Of a DNA stretch of 20,857 nucleotides, positions 2,399-20,000 are shown one piece after another. Every line of letters starts with the position of its first letter. The first letter of the stretch is position 1. Origin of the DNA: Cyanobium sp. M55B138 (lineage in GTDB: Bacteria; Cyanobacteriota; Cyanobacteriia; PCC-6307; Cyanobiaceae); the NCBI GenBank assembly GCA_018400215.1, contig JAGYNF010000006.1, positions 1 through 20,857 of the forward strand, read 5' to 3'. The notes beneath the pieces were generated by a model. It had not been told where the DNA came from. It was given only the letters and a program-made list of their open reading frames with translations, and did no database searches. The position numbers and the translations under genes are program-made.

Positions 2399-4132
2399 AT
2401 GACAACCCCGTTGTGGTCGGGAAGGCCGTGCTGCACCTCGGCGACTGTCTCGACGTGATGCGGGGATGGACCCCGCATCTGTCGACTCGATCGTCTGCGA
2501 TCCGCCGTATGGCCTTGGGTTCATGGGGAAGGAGTGGGACAGCGGAAAGTCTTTTGTCGAGCGCAAGGCGGCAAAGCCCAACACGTTCGATCACGTCGGC
2601 GGCAACCACAATCCGGCGAACAGCAAGGATCAGCAGCGCACAAGGCATCGCGAGGGCATTGCTTACCAGGAATTCATGCACGACTCATTTACGGAAGCCC
2701 TGCGTGTCGCCAAGCCCGGCGCCCATCTGCTTGCGTTCGGCGGCACCCGCACGTTCCACCGGCTCGCTGTCGCGATCGAGGATGCAGGATGGGAGATCCG
2801 CGATACGGTGATGTGGGTTTACGGGTCGGGTTTAGCAAAGGCTTTAACCTGCGCAGAGCTGGCGTATGTGTTTGTTCTGAAAGTGGGAATGCTGTATCAT
2901 GTATCCATCACGAAACTGGAGATGGGCATGGCAAACAGACAACCAAACACGACGTGCGACTTGTGCGGGAAGCGATCTACCGACGCCCGAATCTGCTCCT
3001 CAAGAACAAGGGAAAGTTTTGCTCTACGGCTTGCAGGAACAAGGTTCACAAGGCGTTTGGCCCGGGGGTCGAATCCGAAGCTGGCAGGAGAAAACAATCC
3101 GGCGTGGAGCGGGGAGCTATATCGAGCCGGAGAAAGGGTATCGGATGATACGGAATCCGAGCCATCCGCGAGCGCGACAGAATGGGTATGTTCTGGAGCA
3201 CATTCCGGTAGCCGAGAAGATACTTGGCCGATCGTTGACGGCGGAGGAGGAGGTCCATCACATCAACCGGGATCGGGCGGACAACAGGCCGGAGAACCTG
3301 AAGGTCTACGCGAGTCATCTGGAGCACTGGATGGACGAGCATTACACGGACGTGGCCAATGCCCGCGATGCGGCAAATTACTCAAAGAATACGAAGGATT
3401 CGGGACATCTCTAAAACCAGCGTTTGAGCCGATCATCGTCGCGCGCAAACCCCTCGACGGCACCGTCGCCGGGAATGTGCTCAAGCACGGCTGCGGGGCG
3501 TTGAATGTGGATGGGTGTCGGATTACTGCGGATGGCGGTCGCCCGTTGCGCGAGATCGACCCGAAACAGACGAACAACAACGCCTATGCCGGGCGCATGG
3601 ACGGATCGCTTCAAGGGGGATCGAAAGCCGTTGGCGAGACGACTCTTGGCCGGTTCCCCGCGAACCTCATTCACGACGGCTCGCCCGAGGTGGTCGCGCT
3701 GTTTCCGCAAACGGAATCGGGCACACTGAATCAAGGATCGATCACGTCGGAAAACCGGATCTACGGCAAGCGCGGAGGGTACGACAACCCGACGCTGTAT
3801 CAAGGCAACCAAGGCAGCGCCGCCGCTTCTTCTACTGCGCCAAAGCCAACAAGTCCGACCGCGACACCGACAACACGCACCCGACCGTAAAACCCGTCGA
3901 GCTGATGCGCTATCTGGTGCGCTTGGTTACCCCGCCACGCGGCGTCACGCTGGACCCCTTTATGGGCTCAGGTTCTACCGGAGTCGCCGCCGTCCTCGAA
4001 GAGGCCCGGTTCATCGGCATCGACTACGAACCAAGCTATTTCGAGATCGCCAGCCGCCGCATCGACGACGCCCAACGCCAGCAGACCCTAGACCTGGATC
4101 CGCCCGACCCGCGCGCCCAAACCCCTCAATAA
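2399..4132 (+). CDS. DNA adenine/cytosine-N4 methyltransferase, beta class, interrupted by an HNH endonuclease insertion
   Basis: An S-adenosylmethionine-dependent DNA methyltransferase. Phages use such enzymes to protect DNA from host restriction or to regulate genes. The start is ATG 2399, six bases after the terminase stop; one lost C near 2410 then brings the frame into VVVGKAVLHLGDCLDVM. The catalytic DPPY lies at 2499-2510, followed by GLGFMGKEWD. The AdoMet-binding DPFMGSGST lies at 3953-3979, near the C-terminus. The order DPPY then FxGSG defines the beta class. The first part is good to about GSGFSKGFNL (near 2850). The protein resumes at about 3370 with KLLKEYEGFGTSLKPAFEPI. The intervening ~520 bp carry an HNH endonuclease. 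Other frame changes lie near 2463, 2831 and 3825. The stop is TAA 4130-4132. The target sequence is unknown. Confidence 0.87.
2928..3414 (+). CDS. HNH homing-type endonuclease inside the methyltransferase gene
   Basis: A site-specific DNA nuclease of the phage HNH type. A good Shine-Dalgarno, GGAG at 2918-2921, precedes ATG 2928. The N-terminus has a zinc-ribbon-like module (CDLCGK, about 18 residues, then FCSTAC). Next come GENNPAW and a core reading GYVLEHIPVAEKILGR, EEVHHINRDRADNRPENLKV and HLEHW. The HH pair, the DNRPENL motif and the final H are the usual HNH_3-type signature. The frame changes at about 2965, 3065 and 3115 through single-base losses. The reading frame runs past the likely insertion end into methyltransferase sequence, with the TAA at 3412-3414. 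Base composition is visibly less GC-rich than the neighbours, which fits a mobile gene. It probably arrived by homing into the conserved methyltransferase gene. Confidence 0.85.
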
Positions 4133-6378: not shown

Positions 6379-7822
6379 ATGGCCCTGGTCCCCGCCGTCC
6401 AGCTTCTCGATTCCCGCGGCCGCCCGATGCGCAACAGCGCCTACGAGTCCGCCACCGTCGCGCGCCGCGGCTCCAGCTGGAACGCCCCCGGCTCCGGGCC
6501 GAATCAGGCCCTCAGCTACAGCCTCACGACCCTACGCAACCGCGCCCGCGCAGCCGAGCGCAACAACCCCTGGCTGTGGTCCGCGATCGACCGCCTCGTC
6601 TCCAACGAGGTCGGTGTCGGCGTGACCTTGCGCCCGCGCGCCAAGGATCCGGAGTTCCGCAAGGCCGCCGTCTCCCTCTGGGAGCGCTCCCGCCGCGAGC
6701 TCGACCCCGAGGCACGCTCGACTTCGGCGGCCAGCAGGCCAGGCCGTGCGCGCCCGCCGCGTGGCCGGCGAGGTCTTTGTGCGCCGTCGGCGCCGCACCA
6801 ACGACAGCGCGTTTGCCGTGCCGCTGCAGGTCCAGATCCTCGAAGCGGAGTTCATGCCCGTCGGCGATCATCGCGACCTGCCCAACGGCAACAGCATCCG
6901 CGACGCCATCGAGTTCGACCCCCGCGGCGCCCGCGGCGCCCGCGTCGCCTACTGGCCCTACATCGCACACCCGAGCGACGACACCCGCGGCAGCGGCTGG
7001 AACCGACAGGTGCGCGTCCCGGCCGAGGACATCATCCATCACTACCTGCCGACCCGCCCCGGCCAACGCCGCGGCGAGCCCACGGCCGTGCGCTCCCTGC
7101 TCCCCGCGCGCACCTTCGACACCTACGAAGACGCCGAGCTGATGCGCAAGCAGACCCGCGCCGATCACCACCCAGGAGCTGCCTACCGCGAGGCGTTCAC
7201 GGACCAGGACTGGCACTTCGACCCCTTCACCGGCGCGCCCATCACCAATCTGGACGCACCCCAGATCGACGTGGAGCCCGGAACCTTCCTCGGCCTCGCC
7301 CCGGGGGAGAAGCTGCAACTGTTCGACGCCGACGACAACGGCGCCGGCCTGGACGCCTACAGCCGCACAGTCCTGCTCAAGATCTGCGCCGGCTTCGGCG
7401 TGCCCTTCGAGCTGGTCACCGGCGACTGGTCCAAGGTCAACGACCGCCTCGTCCGCGCCGTGCTCAACGAGTTTCACCGATCCATCGAAGCCGCCCAAGA
7501 CCACCTGCTGATCTTCCAGGTCTGCCTCGGTGTGTGGTCCTGGTGGATGGACGCCGCCGTCTTCGCCGGCCGCCTCCCGGCCCCCGGCTACGCCACCACC
7601 CGACACGACTACCTCGCCGTCCAGGCCCGCCCGCACGGCTGGCGTTACGTCAACCCGGCGCAGGATGTGGAGGCCAAGATCAAGGCCATCGGCGCCCATC
7701 TGACGTCGCGCATCACCGCGATCGACGAACAGCCCGGGCCGTCGGCTGAGGAGATTGACGCGCAGATTGCCGACGACCCTTGGGCGATGACGCCCGCACC
7801 GACCACGCCGGGTGCCGCATGA
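6379..7822 (+). CDS. Portal protein (lambda gpB family), frameshifted
   Basis: The dodecameric ring at the capsid vertex through which DNA enters and leaves. It starts at ATG 6379, two bases after the joiner stop. It begins MALVPAVQLLDSRGRPMRNS. Next come an N-terminal helical region, RNNPWLWSAIDRLVSNEVG, and a region interrupted at about 6715 and 6745. It continues as AVPLQVQILEAEFMP and EDIIHHYLPTRPGQRRGEP. A long clean stretch includes GFGVPFELVTGDWSKVNDR, the family's typical segment (GVPYE.L.GD.S..N). The C-terminus is acidic and ends at TGA 7820-7822. Two one-base repairs give 481 residues, within the family's usual range. A local frame disturbance is also likely near 7165-7180. Confidence 0.9.
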
Positions 7823-7914
7823 ACGCGTGCGCAGCATCCCCGAAAACGACGAACCCCCGAGCGGCTGTCACCGCGCGAGGGCTCTTGCCACAACCAGTAA
7901 AGCAGGTACCGATC
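7823..7914 (+). promoter_or_regulatory. Short intergenic leader before rha with an imperfect hairpin
   Basis: A gap between the portal stop and rha. CCCCCGAGCG near 7856 and CGCGCGAGGG near 7872 pair at eight of ten positions. The arms flank a short loop. No T run follows. It could attenuate readthrough or be a transcriptional boundary for the inserted rha gene. The portal-side ATG at 7819 reads in frame into rha through this gap, so an N-terminally extended Rha (270 aa) cannot be excluded. Confidence 0.3.
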
Positions 7915-8592
7915 ATGGCTAAGCAAAGTGTAACCCATCACGAGATCGCGGGCGTGATCGAGATCCATCGCAACAAGCCGATGGTGTCGAGCCTGAAGAT
8001 TGCGGAGTTGTTTGAGCGTCCGCATAAAAACGTTCTCGCAGCCATCCGCCGCGAGCTCGCCGACGATATTTCGCGGCTTAAACTTGAGCCGCGAGACTAC
8101 ATAGATGCCCGCGGAAAGTCGCAGCCCGTGTTTTGGCTTGACGAGCGTCAAGCGCTTGTCGTGATGCCGTTCCTAGGAGGCAAGAAATCCCGCGAAGGCC
8201 AGCGCAAGCTTGTCGACGCCTACCTCTACTACCGCGACGCCTTCAAGAACCCGCCCCGCGCCGACCTGGTCCGGGGCAAGCGCGACGCCAGCCGAGTGCT
8301 GACCGACTCCATCATCGACATGCGTTCCGAGCACGGCAAAGACACGACCGCCGTGCACTACATGAGCGAGCAGAAGCTGTGCAACTGGGCCGTGAACGGC
8401 GCCTTCAAAGCACTGGACGAATCGAGCCTCAGCAACGAAGACCTTGAGCTGCTGCGCCTGGTGCGCGAACGCAACGCCGCGCTGATCGCCGCCGAAATCG
8501 ACTACCCCGAGCGCAAGGCCCGCCTCGCGCAATACGCCATCCGCCAGCGCACCAAGCTGATCGCCACCGCACCAGGAGACCAAGCCCTATGA
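7915..8592 (+). CDS. rha: Rha-family phage regulatory protein
   Basis: A Rha-type regulator, known from phage phi80/P22-like elements as a DNA-binding anti-repressor or regulatory protein. It starts at ATG 7915 behind AGCAGG (7901-7906). The N-terminal domain reads PMVSSLKIAELFERPHKNVL and AAIRRELADD, followed by RDYIDARGKSQPVFWLDERQ and ALVVMPFLGGKKS. This is the characteristic pRha pattern (the S..IAE.F...H.NVL motif, Y.L..dg..L..mGF.G.kA-like end). A helical C-terminal region (about residues 115-225) follows. The frame is unbroken, unlike most neighbours. The gene sits between portal and protease, where lambda has none, so it looks like an inserted moron. It overlaps the protease start by ATGA. 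Confidence 0.85.
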   Translation: MAKQSVTHHEIAGVIEIHRNKPMVSSLKIAELFERPHKNVLAAIRRELADDISRLKLEPRDYIDARGKSQPVFWLDERQALVVMPFLGGKKSREGQRKLVDAYLYYRDAFKNPPRADLVRGKRDASRVLTDSIIDMRSEHGKDTTAVHYMSEQKLCNWAVNGAFKALDESSLSNEDLELLRLVRERNAALIAAEIDYPERKARLAQYAIRQRTKLIATAPGDQAL

Positions 8593-12727: not shown

Positions 12728-12919
12728 ATGCGCGCCTTCAACCCATTCGCCGCATTCCGGCCGTTCAGCGCGCATCGCGCGTCGGGCCACCGCCCCGCCC
12801 CCGGCTTCGAGCTATTCATGGTCCGCAAGCCCGGCGGAGTCGGCTGGGAGCCCCTCATGGTCCGCAAGCCCGGCGGAGTCGGCTGGGAAACATTTCAGGT
12901 GAAGAAAGCACATGTCTGA
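12728..12919 (+). CDS. Small protein with a 13-residue tandem repeat, 63 aa
   Basis: An unbroken frame from ATG 12728 to TGA 12917-12919. The N-terminus is basic and aromatic (MRAFNPFAAFRPFSAHRASG). The C-terminal half is two copies of MVRKPGGVGWE plus a degenerate third (QVKKAHV). The repeat period is 13 residues. Two nearly identical 34-bp DNA copies underlie it (12816-12849 and 12855-12888). I do not know a family. The repeats could be short binding peptides, and the following small gene starts within the stop region. Confidence 0.5.
   Translation: MRAFNPFAAFRPFSAHRASGHRPAPGFELFMVRKPGGVGWEPLMVRKPGGVGWETFQVKKAHV
12816..12888 (+). repeat. Tandem direct repeat, 2 x 34 bp, period 39
   Basis: Two identical 34-base copies starting tcatggtccgc, at 12816-12849 and 12855-12888. 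The five intervening bases complete a 39-base period, which keeps reading frame and encodes the 13-residue peptide repeat. Perfect identity indicates recent duplication or gene conversion. Confidence 0.9.
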
Positions 12920-12986
12920 GCCGCTACCCCACGAAGATCAGAGCCCCGCATCCGGGTTCCAGATCGAGCAGGAGGCACCGAGCTGA
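12912..12986 (+). CDS. Possible 24-residue peptide
   Basis: ATG 12912 overlaps the previous stop region. The frame reads MSEPLPHEDQSPASGFQIEQ, then EAPS, and stops at TGA 12984-12986, where TGATG starts the fibre gene. Its end carries AGGAGG (12970-12975), the ribosome site for the fibre gene. It may serve mainly as a coupling leader. Too short to identify, but the double overlap fits the operon. Confidence 0.35.
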   Translation: MSEPLPHEDQSPASGFQIEQEAPS

Positions 12987-14973
12987 TGACGGTGATTCTG
13001 GGTGCTGTCCAGCCCGACGACCTCGCCGAGCCCTATGTCGATGAAGGCACCCCCGGCGCTGACGGCCTGTTGACCGCCGCGGACAAGCTCAAGCTCGACG
13101 ACATCGAAAACGAGGCTACAGCGGATCAAACCGCACAAGAAATCGCAACCGCAATCGACGCCGACGAGACAGCGGAAGCGACGCTTAAGACCGCGCTCGG
13201 GCTCGGGTCTGCGGCTTATACCGACGATGACGACTATGCGACCGCCGCCCAAGGCGATTTGGCGAATACCGCAGAACAGCCTGCCGCGATCACAACCGCC
13301 GCGATCACAGACGGCAGCCTCGCCACCCGCTCAACGGCTCGATCCATCACGTCGCTCTAACCGAGGACGTCGATGTCGCCTGGACCGCGCCCATCCCGAG
13401 CGGCGGCAACGCTGCTACGACCGGCTACTACTGCACCGTGGTCTTCAACCCGCCCGGCACTGGCGAAGGCTCGGGCGCCGAAGACGACGGCCCGTGGATC
13501 GCCCCCTTCCCGGTCGGCTGGAATCAGGTCGGCGGTCTCGACTCCATCAACCTCGCACCCGGCGATGACCCGATTGTCTGCTCGCTCGCAAGCGTGGGCG
13601 ACGGCGTGATCCTCGTCTCGGCGGTGGCGAGCAGTGGAGATTGCAGCGTGAGTATGCAGCGGCATTTGCAGTCGATGCTGATGCGCGCAGGCCGCCGTCA
13701 CAACGACATCGGCACGCCGGGCGCCTGGGGCTTCGGCGTGGGCGTGACGCCCTACGATCGGGTGCCCGCAGGCTGGGAGCCGGCAGCGGATCACACGACA
13801 CCCGATGCGGACGGCTACGGCAATTACACCTACCTGGATGGCTCGGTCGCGGCCTATGTGCCGCGTTTTACTACAAATGGGGCACGGGCTCGAATGGTCT
13901 GTCGATCAACACGATCGACATCAAAAACATCTGGACATTCCGCGACCGCGCCCACGCCGCGCAGTCCGGCTACGCCCTGCACCGGGCCTTTGTCGACGGC
14001 GGGCAGGTTATGCCCGGCGCATTCGTGGACAAATACCAGTGGAGCGCGAACAGCTACAACGGCAACGTGGTTGCGGGAAGCATCAAAAACGGCGATCCGC
14101 TCTCGAGCAGCGCCTCGCGCAACGGCAGGGCTCCCTGCTCACCGGCCTGACGACGACGGACAACATCTATGCCGGCGCGCTCAAAGCCGCCAAAACGCGG
14201 GGCCAGGATTTCTTCTGCAACAGCCGCTTCATCTGGGCTGCGCTGGCGATGCTGTCCTACGCCCATGCACAGGCGTCGTCATCGACCGAGCGCTGCGGCG
14301 GTACATGGCCGGCGCCAACTACCCCAAAGGCAACAACAGCAATAACGCTGCGCGCACCGACGTGGACGACACGAGCTGCTCATGGACCTCGAGCGGCTAC
14401 AACTTCTGCGGCCTGACGGGCAGCGCGTCGACATTCGCAAAATCCACGCACAACGGTCAAAACTCGGGCATTGCCGATCTGAACGGCAACGTCTGGGAAG
14501 TCACGCCCGGATTCACGAGCAACGGCTCCCATTTCCTCATTTTCAAAGAGGCCGCATCGATCGTCGATGTGACGGGCGGCACGACCCTGTCTACGGATCT
14601 GTGGAGCGCAGCCGGGTATTCGGACCTTCACGACAATCTCGGCGCCACCTATGAAAGCGCAATCGCGCGCAGCGCCGTTACACGCTACGCAAGCGCCAGC
14701 CAGGCATTCAGCGCCGCCACCGAAGGCAACGCCTGGGCATTCGCAGGCATGGGCGGCATGCTCGCCGCGGGCGCCAGTACGGCGGGCACGGCCGAATTCG
14801 GAAGCGACGGTTTTGGGATTACCGGCCTGCGGCCATGTGCCGATTTCGGGCGGGAGCTGGAACACCGGGGCGAGCGCGGGGGTCTGGGCGTTGAATTGCG
14901 GCGCTGTCCGGGGCAGCTCGTCTGTCCGCGTTGGGGGCCGGGCCGCCTGTTACTTGGCTGGCCCGAGCGATAG
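12986..14973 (+). CDS. DGR target: fibre-like protein with C-type-lectin/FGE-type variable C-terminus, about 664 aa
   Basis: The probable receptor-binding tail protein diversified by the DGR. It starts at ATG 12986, behind AGGAGG. The N-terminus (MTVILGAVQPDDLAEPYVDE, then AADKLKLDDIENEA and ATLKTALGLGSAAYTDDDDY) resembles phage tail-fibre shafts. The middle reads YDRVPAGWEPAADHTTPDAD, FYYKWGTGSNGLSINTIDIK and NYPKGNNSNNAARTDVDD. GIADLNGNVWEVTPGF (near 14468) is the FGE/CLec core motif. GFGITGLRP then leads into the variable repeat: PISGGSWNTGASAGVWALNC, GAVRGSSSVRVGGRAA. Breaks lie near 13325, 13866, 14127, 14271, 14833-14842 and 14963. Restoring seven lost bases gives exactly 665 codons with a TAG at 14971-14973. 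FGE enzymatic activity is not expected. The alternative is two proteins split near 13330. Confidence 0.85.
14834..14948 (+). repeat. DGR variable repeat (VR)
   Basis: The 3' end of the target gene matches the template repeat at 15391-15505. From 14843 to 14948 there are 18 substitutions and one one-base gap. Every substituted position is an A in TR: twelve A to G, five A to C and one A to T. No other TR base differs. Twelve residues change: seven TR Asn codons become Ser, Thr, Gly, Ala or Arg, and Glu, Thr, Gln and Asp also change. The non-A framework (WN, AGVW, LNC, VGG) is fixed. The GC-rich 3' end, CGTTGGGGGCC plus flanks (14929-14948), is the likely initiation-of-homing site. Confidence 0.95.
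14939..14965 (+). other. Inverted repeat at the VR 3' end
   Basis: CGGGCC (14939-14944) and GGCCCG (14960-14965) are perfect inverted repeats. A second GCC/GGC pair lies inside (14945-14947 and 14956-14958), with one bulged T and an eight-base loop. DGRs often have a hairpin or cruciform just past the homing site that aids retrohoming. Here it overlaps the end of the repeat and the target gene's stop region. The role is inferred from position. Confidence 0.45.
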
Positions 14974-14975
14974 CG

Positions 14976-15376
14976 ATGGGCCTTCACTCGAAGCCAACCT
15001 GAATCAGCGGTTCATCGAGACCGCGCGTCAGGTCAATTTGTATTTGAATCATTTTCCGAAGCATGAAAAGTACGCGCTCGCACAGCAGATCCGGAATGCG
15101 CTGTACGACGTGTATGCGCTGATCGTCGAAGCGCAAAAGCGCTATCACAAGAAAACCACGCTAACCAACCTCGACATTCGCCACGAGCAGCTGCGGATGT
15201 TCGTTAATCTCGCGCACAGTCTCGGCTATTTTCAGTTCCGCGACGGTCAGCCGTCCGCCGAGTCGCCGGAGGCGCGGGCTATCCACAGACACCTGGTCTT
15301 GAGTCGAATGATCGACGAGCTTGGGCGGATGATCGGTGGGTGGCTGAGGCTGGAATCAGGAGGCAAAGAGCAGTGA
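14976..15376 (+). CDS. avd: DGR accessory variability determinant (Avd), about 133 aa
   Basis: A four-helix-bundle protein that binds the DGR reverse transcriptase and template RNA. The start ATG 14976 lies two bases after the target stop. One lost G in the GGG run (14978-14980) brings it into frame as MGPSLEANLNQRF. It reads VNLYLNHFPKHEKYALAQQI, then RNALYDVYALIVEAQKRYHK and HEQLRMFVNLAHSLGYFQF, ending ELGRMIGGWLRLESGGKEQ at TGA 15374-15376. The FPKHE, A...A..RY and GRMIGGWL elements are the Avd hallmarks as I recall them. Length is normal for the family. As written, the target frame runs straight into this frame without a stop. Confidence 0.9.
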
Positions 15377-15632
15377 AGGAGACGTCTTAACATGTGCCCG
15401 ATTTCGGGCGGGAACTGGAACAACGAGGCGAACGCAGGGTCTGGACGTTGAATTGCAACAATGTCCGAGGCAACTCGAATGTCAACGTTGGGGGCCAGGC
15501 CGACTCTGATTCACCTCGCATCCGGCAACGGAATGGTGGAACACAGGGAGACGTTTTCCTGCGCGCAAGCGCGAAATCAGAGTGCATCCGCCTTTCCGGT
15601 AGGGCCGGCAACGGTGTCGAAGGTCAGGCGCG
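15377..15632 (+). ncRNA. Probable DGR template RNA (TR plus flanks)
   Basis: The interval between avd and the reverse transcriptase has no convincing protein. It contains TR, then a 127-base spacer to the RT start. In studied DGRs this TR-plus-spacer RNA is the reverse-transcription template and primer. A short GCGC stem closed by a GCAA loop (15561-15572) is visible in the spacer. The RNA ends are unknown. Small open frames here (such as 15394-15636) are shadows of TR. Confidence 0.7.
15391..15505 (+). repeat. DGR template repeat (TR)
   Basis: The invariant donor copy of the VR, between avd and the reverse transcriptase. It is rich in AAC and AAT codons at the diversified positions. In VR frame it reads MCPISGGNWNNEANAG, then VWTLNCNNVRGNSNVNVGGQ. 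Of 27 adenines between 15401 and 15505, 18 differ in VR. One G is missing in the run at 15437-15439 relative to VR (four bases AGGG against five G). If real, that deletion would transfer a frameshift to VR on retrohoming, so it is more likely a base-calling loss. Confidence 0.95.
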
Positions 15633-16632
15633 ATGAAGCGCATCGGTCATTTGTTCGAGGCTGCGTTTACGCCGGAAAGCATTTATGCGGGGTATGCGGC
15701 GCCTCTCGCGGCAAGCATCACACCCGCGCCTGTTTCGAGTTCGAGCGGAGGCTTGCGTATCACCTCGACATGCTGCGCGGGCTGACCAGCGGGCGCTATC
15801 GGCCCCGGCCCTACTTCCGATTCGTCGTCAAAGAGCCGAAAGAGCGCGTGATCTACGCCCCGGCTTTTCGTGATCTCGTGGTGCAGCACGCCATCTATCG
15901 CGTCATCCTGCCCATCTTCGATCCGACCTTTATCGCCGCGTCGTTTGCCTGCCGGGTGGGCTACGGCACGCACCGCGCCGCCGATTATGCGCAGCAGGCA
16001 CTCAAGGCCAGTCCGCGCGACAGCTACACGCTCAAGCTCGACGCACGAAAATTCTTCTACAGCATCGATCGCGCGGTACTGCGCACGCTGATCGAGCGCA
16101 AGATCAAAGACCGCCGCTTTATCGGCGTGATGATGCAGTTTGCGGATTACGGGTCGCCTGTCGGCATCCCGATCGGCAACCTCCTCAGCCAGATTTACGC
16201 GCTGATCTATCTCAATCCCGTGGATCATTTCGTCAAGCGCGAGCTCGGCGTGAAGCGCTATTGCCGCTATGTCGATGATCTCATGCTGTTCGGCCTGACC
16301 CGCGAGCAGTGCGTGGAGTATCGCGAGCGCATTGCCGCGTTCATGCGCGACCGGCTGGGCTGGAGCTTTCGCGCACCACGATCGCGACCGTACAGCGCGG
16401 CGTCAACTTCGTCGGATACCGTACCTGGGCGCGCAAGCGATTCGTTCGCAAGCACAGCCTTTATACGCTGCGCCGATCCGTTGCGCGTGGAAAGCTCGAC
16501 TCCGTCGTCTCGGTGCTCGGGCACGCCAGGCGCACGCACAGTCTGCGACACATGATTGCGACGGTCAGACGCCGAACCCCGGCGATGTACCGGGCGCTCC
16601 CGCCGGCATATAGGAGGATGACATGTACATGA
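15633..16632 (+). CDS. DGR reverse transcriptase, about 333 aa
   Basis: The error-prone, adenine-mutagenic reverse transcriptase that copies the TR RNA into cDNA for VR replacement. ATG 15633 gives MKRIGHLFEAAFTPESIYAG, the usual DGR-RT opening (MKR.G.LF). After a lost base near 15705 it reads GKHHTRACFEFERRLAYHLD. Further motifs are RPRPYFRFVVKEPKERVIYA, FRDLVVQHAIYRVI, ASFACRVGYGTHRA and LKLDARKFFYSID. IGNLLSQ at 16172-16192 is the DGR-specific motif 4 (in place of the QG of group II and retroviral enzymes). RYVDDLMLFG has the catalytic YVDD at 16268-16279. A second lost G near 16364 restores LGLELSRTTIATV and FVGYRTWARKRFVRKHSLY. It ends at TGA 16630-16632. Two one-base repairs give exactly 334 codons. 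All catalytic residues are intact. Confidence 0.95.
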
Positions 16633-16809
16633 CCGAAGCTCACCGCCTAGCGATAGAGCCTCTAGACAATCGCTGGCTCGACACAAAGGTCAAAAGGCCG
16701 AAAAGCCCTACTCGCTCGACACAATTTGTCTGAGGCTACCACCTCAATATCCTCGGTTCCCGGAGCATCCTCCGGGGAGCGCGCGACATGTACATGACCG
16801 AAGCTCACC
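16620..16809 (+). repeat. Structured spacer bounded by a 25-bp direct repeat
   Basis: Identical 25-base copies beginning gacatgtacatg lie at 16620-16644 and 16785-16809. Both contain ATGTACATG and encode MYMTEAH. The 140 bases between them hold several inverted repeats. AGCGAT/ATCGCT lie at 16649-16654 and 16669-16674. CCCGGAG-CATC-CTCCGGG lies at 16759-16776. GCTCGACACAA also occurs twice as a direct repeat (16676-16686 and 16714-16724). The first copy follows AGGAGG (16612-16617) and overlaps the RT stop. Confidence 0.75.
16623..16733 (+). CDS. Possible 36-aa peptide in the repeat-bounded spacer
   Basis: ATG 16623 (or 16629) lies five bases after AGGAGG, overlapping the end of the RT gene. 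The frame starts MYMTEAHRLAIEPLDNRWLD, is basic after that (TKVKRPKSPTRSTQFV), and stops at TGA 16731-16733. It has the same first seven residues as the next gene, because both are encoded in the duplicated 25-bp segment. It could be a real small protein or a start region displaced by an insertion. Confidence 0.35.
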   Translation: MYMTEAHRLAIEPLDNRWLDTKVKRPKSPTRSTQFV

Positions 16810-19503: not shown

Positions 19504-20000
19504 CCCGCGTCAATTCAAGATCGAGATTTTGTTGCCCGGTCTGCGTCAGCTGGAAACCGCCGTGCTGGGGCAGATCAGCGCCGATCCGGGATGCCGCGCT
19601 GCAGATGCTGCTGACGATCGCGCTGCAGGAATCCGCGCTCGAGCACCGCGCCCAAGTCATCGCGAGCGGCAACCCGGGCCCCGCGCGGGGCTGGTGGCAG
19701 TTCGAGCGCGCGGGCGGCGTGGCCGGCGTGATGAGGCATCCCGCATCCGCCGCGCTTGCGCGGAATCTGTGCCAGGCATGCCATGTCCCCTTCAGCGCGC
19801 CACATATCTGGCGATGCCTGGAAGGGCACGACGTGCTCGCGGCCGGGTTTGCGCGCCTGCTGCTCTGGACCGACCCTACGCCGCTGCCGACCGACCATGC
19901 CGGCGGGTGGGACTATTACTTAAATAATTGGAGACCCGGAAAACCACACCCCGCGAAATGGCCGGGCTATTGGCGTCAGGCCGGCGAGGCACTGGCATGA
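19500..20000 (+). CDS. Lysozyme-like phage protein, about 167 aa
   Basis: A probable muramidase or transglycosylase-like cell-wall enzyme. ATG 19500 overlaps the previous TGA. After a lost C it reads MTPRQFKIEILLPGLRQLET, then AVLGQISADP and ALQMLLTIALQESALEHRAQ. Another break lies near 19590. The core reads ASGNPGPARGWWQFERAGGV, then RCLEGHDVLAAGFARLLLWT and GGWDYYLNNWRPGKPHPAKW. The Glu in ALQES with GPARGWWQFE resembles the lysozyme-like fold used by phages. It could be an endolysin or a virion-associated wall hydrolase. It stops in an ATGA overlap at 19997-20000. Confidence 0.65.
   Translation: MTRVNSRSRFCCPVCVSWKPPCWGRSAPIRDAALQMLLTIALQESALEHRAQVIASGNPGPARGWWQFERAGGVAGVMRHPASAALARNLCQACHVPFSAPHIWRCLEGHDVLAAGFARLLLWTDPTPLPTDHAGGWDYYLNNWRPGKPHPAKWPGYWRQAGEALA

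What the first reader, a model, noticed from the sequence alone, without database searches (positions are those of the whole stretch)
12986..16632. Complete diversity-generating retroelement in a lambda-type phage
The four parts occur in canonical order: CLec-type target with VR, Avd, TR, reverse transcriptase with IGNLLSQ and YVDD. The target is fibre-like, so the DGR probably diversifies host-receptor binding. Seen: all motifs and repeats. Established: DGR architecture and RT/Avd families. Inferred: activity and receptor role.
Basis: partly seen in the sequence, partly recalled or inferred. Interest (0 to 1): 0.92.

Follow-up and report, generated by a model that had tools for sequence, protein, structure and literature searches.

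The report
Phage gene-diversifying retroelement with CLec target
This stretch of a phage genome carries a known kind of element that copies a template into the end of one surface-type protein gene and scrambles it at A positions; the element is genuine and belongs to a well-known class, and the gene breaks seen in this copy look like sequencing errors.

Summary

Corrections: ORF 12986 belongs to a separate upstream gene; target, Avd start and RT are frame-broken in this contig, most likely by sequencing error. The contig looks misbinned, so the host is unknown. Receptor binding is inferred. New member of a known kind; the lineage-wide spacer RNA is the least routine part.

The parts
12912..13651 (+). 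upstream fibre-like gene (separate from the target; frame-broken in this contig)
   Evidence: tblastn of P0115 in pieces between 12912 and 13632, 33-79% identical; end read from the sequence; weak tail-fibre PHROG matches (E 0.0013 and 0.0093) for ORF 12986
13654..14973 (+). DGR target gene, TaqVP-like CLec variable protein (frame-broken in this contig)
14834..14948 (+). variable repeat (VR)
   Evidence: aligned to TR, 18/18 substitutions at TR adenines
14960..14982 (+). hairpin/cruciform downstream of VR: arms GGCCC/GGGCC, loop GATA, tandem G.A step inside
   Evidence: octamer GCGATAGC in 51 of 66 loci; arms covary
14976..15376 (+). avd (accessory variability determinant; start region frame-broken)
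   Evidence: Pfam PF22296 61.6 bits, cut-off 40; phrog_3206; intact relatives P0241-P0243
15391..15505 (+). template repeat (TR)
15506..15632 (+). structured spacer RNA between TR and RT
   Evidence: covariation over 38 rows; covariance model R1 hit at 15505-15635, 122.7 bits, the window being a training row; 24 of 25 pairs standard in the window
15633..16632 (+). DGR reverse transcriptase (two frame breaks in this contig)
   Evidence: phrog_1423 1.4e-72; tblastn of intact P0122 in three pieces; L012 runs through one of the breaks in frame

Best explanation
A Bordetella BPP-1-type DGR in a lambda-like tailed phage. The TR transcript, its 3' spacer RNA, Avd and the RT form a complex that makes cDNA of the TR with random bases opposite adenines. 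The cDNA replaces the VR at the 3' end of a C-type-lectin-fold (TaqVP-like) target gene, guided by VR/TR 3' homology and the GATA-loop hairpin after the VR. The product is a population of phages whose target protein differs at about a dozen positions, most likely to vary binding to host surfaces. Shown here: anatomy, A-only substitutions, VR differences between near-identical copies, predicted CLec fold, covarying spacer RNA and hairpin. Taken from published BPP-1 work: the biochemical steps. Inferred: activity of this very copy, virion location of the target, and receptor binding. The broken frames in the contig are most likely sequencing or assembly errors.
For: A-bias 18/18; P0001 VR vs TR: 10 of 10 differing codons contain A at position 1 or 2, p about 9e-6, while 72-, 88- and 171-residue pieces outside the VR carry 2 differences in all; L002/L003: 19 of 29 differing positions in the VR; A-biased TR/VR pairs in 8 of the 10 RT relatives L002-L011 and in 43 of the 80 target relatives L031-L110 (the 80 are the best of 186); RT and Avd families; fold; hairpin; spacer RNA; head module.
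Against: Target, Avd start and RT are frame-broken in the window. The Avd model NF033474 scores 74.2 bits against a cut-off of 80, and three intact relatives reach only 73.6-78. The target reaches no Pfam cut-off (FGE-sulfatase 15.1 of 23.3) and P0001 no Pfam or NCBIfam match at 0.01. DNA of P0001 was not available, so its VR was compared only as protein. No reads of this population were examined.
Confidence: 0.95

Rival explanations
1. A decayed, inactive DGR: the frame breaks are real mutations in a degenerating prophage.
For: Several frame changes in the target and two in the RT; terminase also runs over two ORFs. In other contigs of the same bin ABC-transporter domains are mostly whole (26 of 33 matches span nearly the full profile, none with stops inside), so the bin as a whole does not show the problem.
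Against: Length differences without substitutions: L012 has no mismatch over 702 window bases, with two one-base length differences and one longer segment missing. P0001 is intact and nearly identical. P0011, from another contig, reads through breaks seen in the window and breaks elsewhere itself, as random errors would. TR and VR differ by no substitution outside A.
Confidence: 0.06
2. The target is not a receptor-binding tail protein but a head or neck decoration, or a secreted protein, because the cassette lies between head-tail joining genes and the lysis and tail-terminator genes.
For: Gene order: major head protein to 11496, cassette 13654-16632, weak tail-terminator match (9.7e-5) at 19928. 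TaqVP is a single-domain monomer without the Mtd attachment domains (passages of PMC6328139).
Against: The upstream gene has weak tail-fibre matches. Of 29 predicted viral structures at E <= 0.001, 10 are named tail collar fibre protein and 1 tail fibre protein; the best one is a hypothetical Campylobacter phage protein. Phage DGRs seemingly diversify host-attachment proteins (abstract of PMC8144416).
Confidence: 0.2
3. The RT belongs to a group II intron, retron or DRT defence system, and the TR/VR pair is a chance repeat.
For: RT models of those systems match: group II 114 bits, Drt3a 49, retron St85 42 with P0122, and 68 PADLOC models with P0122, the best a generic RT model at 143 bits.
Against: All NCBIfam matches are far below their cut-offs (114 against 300 for group II); BPP-1 bRT is the best solved match; A-only substitution pattern.
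Confidence: 0.01

Closest known systems
Bordetella phage BPP-1 DGR (mtd-avd-TR-brt)
   Same: Same order target(VR)-gene in the avd place-TR-RT; RT 38% identical over 313 columns (P0122); hairpin after VR with a loop of the published GRNA type; structured TR-RT spacer
Thermus aquaticus prophage DGR variable protein TaqVP (5vf4)
   Same: CLec fold of FGE subtype, VR at the C-terminus, phage-encoded, avd and TR downstream (passages of PMC6328139)
   Different: 24% identity in the structural alignment; longer (441 vs 381 aa); relatives named in the searches are Pseudomonadota rather than Thermus
Phage DGR clades of the global survey (Roux et al. 2021, PMC8144416)
   Same: Phage-encoded; over 75% of mismatches facing A, as in nearly all DGRs there (passages)
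   Different: Which of the six clades this one belongs to was not tested

Membership tests
Diversity-generating retroelement | RT of the DGR group with IGxxxSQ-type motif (motif rule recalled) | tested here: met
   P0122 vs 8ub7 185 bits, next 78; BPP-1 Brt matches 8ub7 end to end, 765.5 bits; IGNLLSQ at 16172-16192; no tree built
Diversity-generating retroelement | TR/VR pair differing at TR adenines | tested here: met
   18 of 18 substitutions at A
Diversity-generating retroelement | VR at the 3' end of a CLec- or Ig-fold target | tested here: met
   VR ends 22 bp before the TAG at 14971-14973; fold of P0001 matches TaqVP and Mtd
Diversity-generating retroelement | Accessory protein Avd | tested here: met
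   PF22296 above cut-off, phrog_3206; NCBIfam NF033474 just below its cut-off
Diversity-generating retroelement | Hairpin/cruciform with GRNA loop downstream of VR (PMC3240598) | tested here: met
   GATA loop; 51 of 66 loci have the octamer; the stem here is 5 bp + tandem G.A + 2 bp, not an unbroken 7-10 bp
Diversity-generating retroelement | IMH in VR vs IMH* in TR | tested here: inconclusive
   A fixed A-to-C difference at the 3' end in 15 of 15 close pairs (9 distinct TRs), absent in the 6 distant pairs shown; function not tested
Diversity-generating retroelement | Mutagenic retrohoming in the population | tested here: inconclusive
   VR differs between near-identical copies; no reads or experiment
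lambda-like phage head module | terminase, portal, protease, decoration and major head protein in order | tested here: met
   phrog_15, 21, 94, 49, 29; contig is partial
TaqVP-like variable protein | fold match over most of the protein | tested here: met

The most novel reading that the evidence does not exclude
This DGR lineage carries its own conserved RNA family in the TR-RT spacer (five helices, four of them with compensatory changes, no Rfam match in the window), together with a VR-end hairpin built on a GA-GC-GATA-GC-GA core. The two would be the priming platform and the target-recognition signal of the lineage, distinct in sequence from those of BPP-1. They would let DGR RNA co-evolution with RT/Avd be read from sequence alone.
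Probability: 0.55. Interest if true: 0.45.

Novelty: new member of a known kind. Interest (0 to 1): 0.32.

Why it matters
It adds an environmental phage DGR with a TaqVP-like target and shows, from public copies alone, that the VR changes while the rest of the target (here) or of the phage (relatives L002/L003) stays nearly constant. The lineage-wide spacer RNA gives a concrete structure for testing how DGR reverse transcriptases start cDNA synthesis outside the model system BPP-1.

Tried and rejected
Rejected: target-Avd fusion, suggested by the uninterrupted ORF 14651-15376. Intact relatives have a separate target and a separate 132-133-aa Avd starting MGLH (P0001, P0002, P0241-P0243), so the fusion is a frame artefact. 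Rejected: fusion of the upstream fibre-like gene with the target in L031. The extra N-terminal part of that stop-to-stop ORF does not align to P0115 and precedes an ATG. Doubted: a cyanophage reading from the bin (see Noticed in passing).

No result: exact or degenerate TR and RT DNA patterns in viral contigs (0 hits); Rfam at gathering scores in the window (0); TIGR02013 in the own genome (0); other RVT_1 genes in the own genome (only this one); a second VR in the own genome (only the query itself); relatives in 292 genomes of the phylum (1 match of 31 bp besides the window). MFE folding of the single spacer was not remarkable (z -1.53, 15 of 200 shuffles as good); only the alignment gave the signal. 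Model R1 hit 22 of 54 sources (2 of them training rows, and L002/L003 near-identical) and missed BPP-1, the more distant DGRs, and also L008, an RT relative of this lineage in which no TR/VR pair was found.

Row choices: of 79 spacers, 60 hold GCGAAAT, and 46 remained at under 90% identity. 38 went into A4; 8 were dropped (L119, L148, L166, L175, L181, L182, L185, L191). Row L120x in A4 was cut from the wrong place and stayed in the count. A5 (34 rows) has it corrected and drops L149, L168, L178 and L192. R1 was built from A5. The structure counted was derived from the same alignment, which favours it over slid versions. In one search, 3 of the 24 arm pairs hardly pair (1-2 of 5).

Papers: PMC8144416, PMC6328139, PMC10743442, PMC3240598, PMC12875486, PMC8867640 and PMC6642488 were seen as passages only; others only in listings. 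I saw no description of this spacer RNA family in those listings and passages, which does not show that none exists. [quoted passage not shown]

Full report
Observation. Self-comparison of the window finds a 116-column repeat, 14834-14948 against 15391-15505, with 18 substitutions, every one at an adenine of the second copy, and two one-base length differences. Of 28 adenines in the aligned TR, 10 are unchanged. The chance of all 18 falling on A is about 3e-14. Around this pair lie, in order, a target gene, Avd, TR and RT. The RT piece 15461-16552 matches phrog_1423 'Reverse transcriptase' at 1.4e-72 and Pfam RVT_1. The Avd frame passes Pfam bAvd with 61.6 bits against a cut-off of 40 and matches phrog_3206 'Avd protein of DGR'. 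The NCBIfam Avd model stays just below its cut-off of 80, for the window (74.2) and for three intact relatives (73.6-78).

Gene boundaries and the broken frames. Target, end of target/start of Avd, and RT each change frame in this contig. The large terminase runs over two overlapping ORFs, both phrog_15, and the portal match lacks about the first 158 profile positions. I regard this as sequencing or assembly error for four reasons. P0001, from a 26.6-kb NCBI contig, is an intact 441-aa target whose 72-, 88- and 171-residue pieces differ from the window at 2 residues, one of them at the edge of a frame break. L012 (contig JAGYNU010000087.1, named Omnitrophota) matches 702 window bases with no substitution, two one-base length differences and one longer segment missing, and reads the RT end in frame. 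P0011, from another contig of withheld source, reads through the first breaks of the window and breaks elsewhere. Near-relatives P0122 (RT, 334 aa) and P0241-P0243 (Avd, 132-133 aa) are intact.

RT identity. Against solved structures P0122, the close intact relative, scores 185 bits with 8ub7 and 78 with the next chain, the GsI-IIC RT. 8ub7 is matched end to end by the annotated Brt of BPP-1, AY029185. P0122 and BPP-1 Brt are 38% identical over 313 columns. Group II, retron and DRT models in NCBIfam stay far below their cut-offs. No tree was built, so the clade within DGRs is open.

Diversification. P0001's VR differs from the TR at 10 of 37 codons. All 10 contain A at position 1 or 2, and all are reachable by changing A alone; p = 8.6e-6. 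In the same RT lineage, L002 and L003 are 99.8% identical over 14,617 columns; 19 of their 29 differing positions lie in the 120-bp VR, while their TRs are the same. L005 and L006 share one TR with different VRs. A-biased TR/VR pairs were found in 8 of the 10 RT relatives L002-L011 (all but L008 and L009) and in 43 of the 80 target relatives L031-L110 (the 80 best of 186). Some of the 37 without a pair, such as L031, L041 and L048, end at the match. In 15 of 15 close pairs (9 distinct TRs) the VR has C where the TR has A at the same 3' position, unlike the 6 distant pairs shown. I read this as the IMH/IMH* difference, so one of the 18 substitutions is probably fixed rather than random.

(a) A hairpin just after the VR: arms GGCCC 14960-14964 and GGGCC 14978-14982 around GAGC-GATA-GCGAT. 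The octamer GCGATAGC lies within 1,300 nt upstream of the RT in 51 of 66 loci (window and L005 included). In the 24 distinct arm pairs of the tandem-GA form, 4.46 of 5 positions pair on average, against 3.69 for permuted arms (0 of 2,000 permutations as high); 3 of the 24 hardly pair. PMC3240598 describes such hairpins in phage DGRs with a GRNA loop and 7-10-bp GC-rich stems (passages). The tandem-GA step is a variant of that. (b) The TR-RT spacer, 15506-15632, is a structured RNA. Over 38 rows, 95.2% of cells form standard pairs (76.0% shuffled), 118 cells are changed on both sides (34.7 shuffled), and the covariation score is 0.495 against at most 0.122 for slid structures. There are five helices; four have changes on both sides and one is almost invariant (one mis-cut row included, and the structure came from the same alignment). 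A covariance model from 34 rows finds 20 of the 52 sources that were not training rows, at the expected place, and none in BPP-1, in the more distant DGRs or in L008. 24 of 25 pairs are standard in the window. PMC12875486 states that the BPP-1 spacer folds, recruits bRT-Avd, and that an internal adenine primes cDNA (passage). I infer the same job here.

Phage and host. PHROG matches give terminase, portal, head protease, decoration and major head protein in lambda-like order, then the cassette, and a weak tail-terminator match at 19928. The nearest annotated capsids are from Curvibacter and Pseudomonas phages at under 50% identity. The target relative L031 (81% identical) sits beside a different portal family (phrog_156, against phrog_21 in the window), which suggests that the target gene moves between phage backbones. 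The bin that holds the window looks like a small high-GC cyanobacterium by its L2 protein (recalled judgement), which does not fit these relatives; misbinning is likely.

Verdict. A real DGR with good indirect evidence of activity; well known in kind. Interest 0.32; the spacer RNA family is the part a specialist would follow up.

Noticed in passing
16620-16809: A 25-bp direct repeat spans the RT end and the start of the next gene, with 140 bp between the copies; L012 has a single copy and lacks the stretch between.
   Followed up: partly
2466-3890: DNA methyltransferase ORF whose PHROG match is spread over residues 3-358 of the ORF against 116 profile positions; an HNH_3 endonuclease domain lies in an overlapping frame at 2899-3411, looking like an HNH insertion in the methyltransferase gene.
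   Followed up: partly
L012 3107-3785 and L014 8005-8062: Pieces of this phage (679 and 58 bp) sit in contigs named Omnitrophota (M55B152) and Actinomycetota (M55B165) next to unrelated sequence, suggesting chimeric assemblies, perhaps from one study.
   Followed up: partly
window as contig C347 of G000: The bin's L2 ribosomal protein looks like Prochlorococcus/Synechococcus (recalled), so the phage contig is probably misbinned.
   Followed up: partly
P0011: Near-identical target N-terminal part encoded on a 6,004,453-bp contig of withheld source: possibly a lysogen's chromosome.
   Followed up: no
12802-12879: Two tandem copies of a 39-bp unit encode a repeated MVRKPGGVGWE peptide in small ORF 12728-12919.
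   Followed up: no
7780-8592: A Rha-family phage regulatory protein lies between portal and head protease (Pfam above cut-off, NCBIfam just below).
   Followed up: no
L032, L033, L034, L036, L038: Five contigs with the same TR 3' end and the same spacer have VRs with 14-20 substitutions each, nearly all at A: a ready-made set for studying VR spectra.
   Followed up: no
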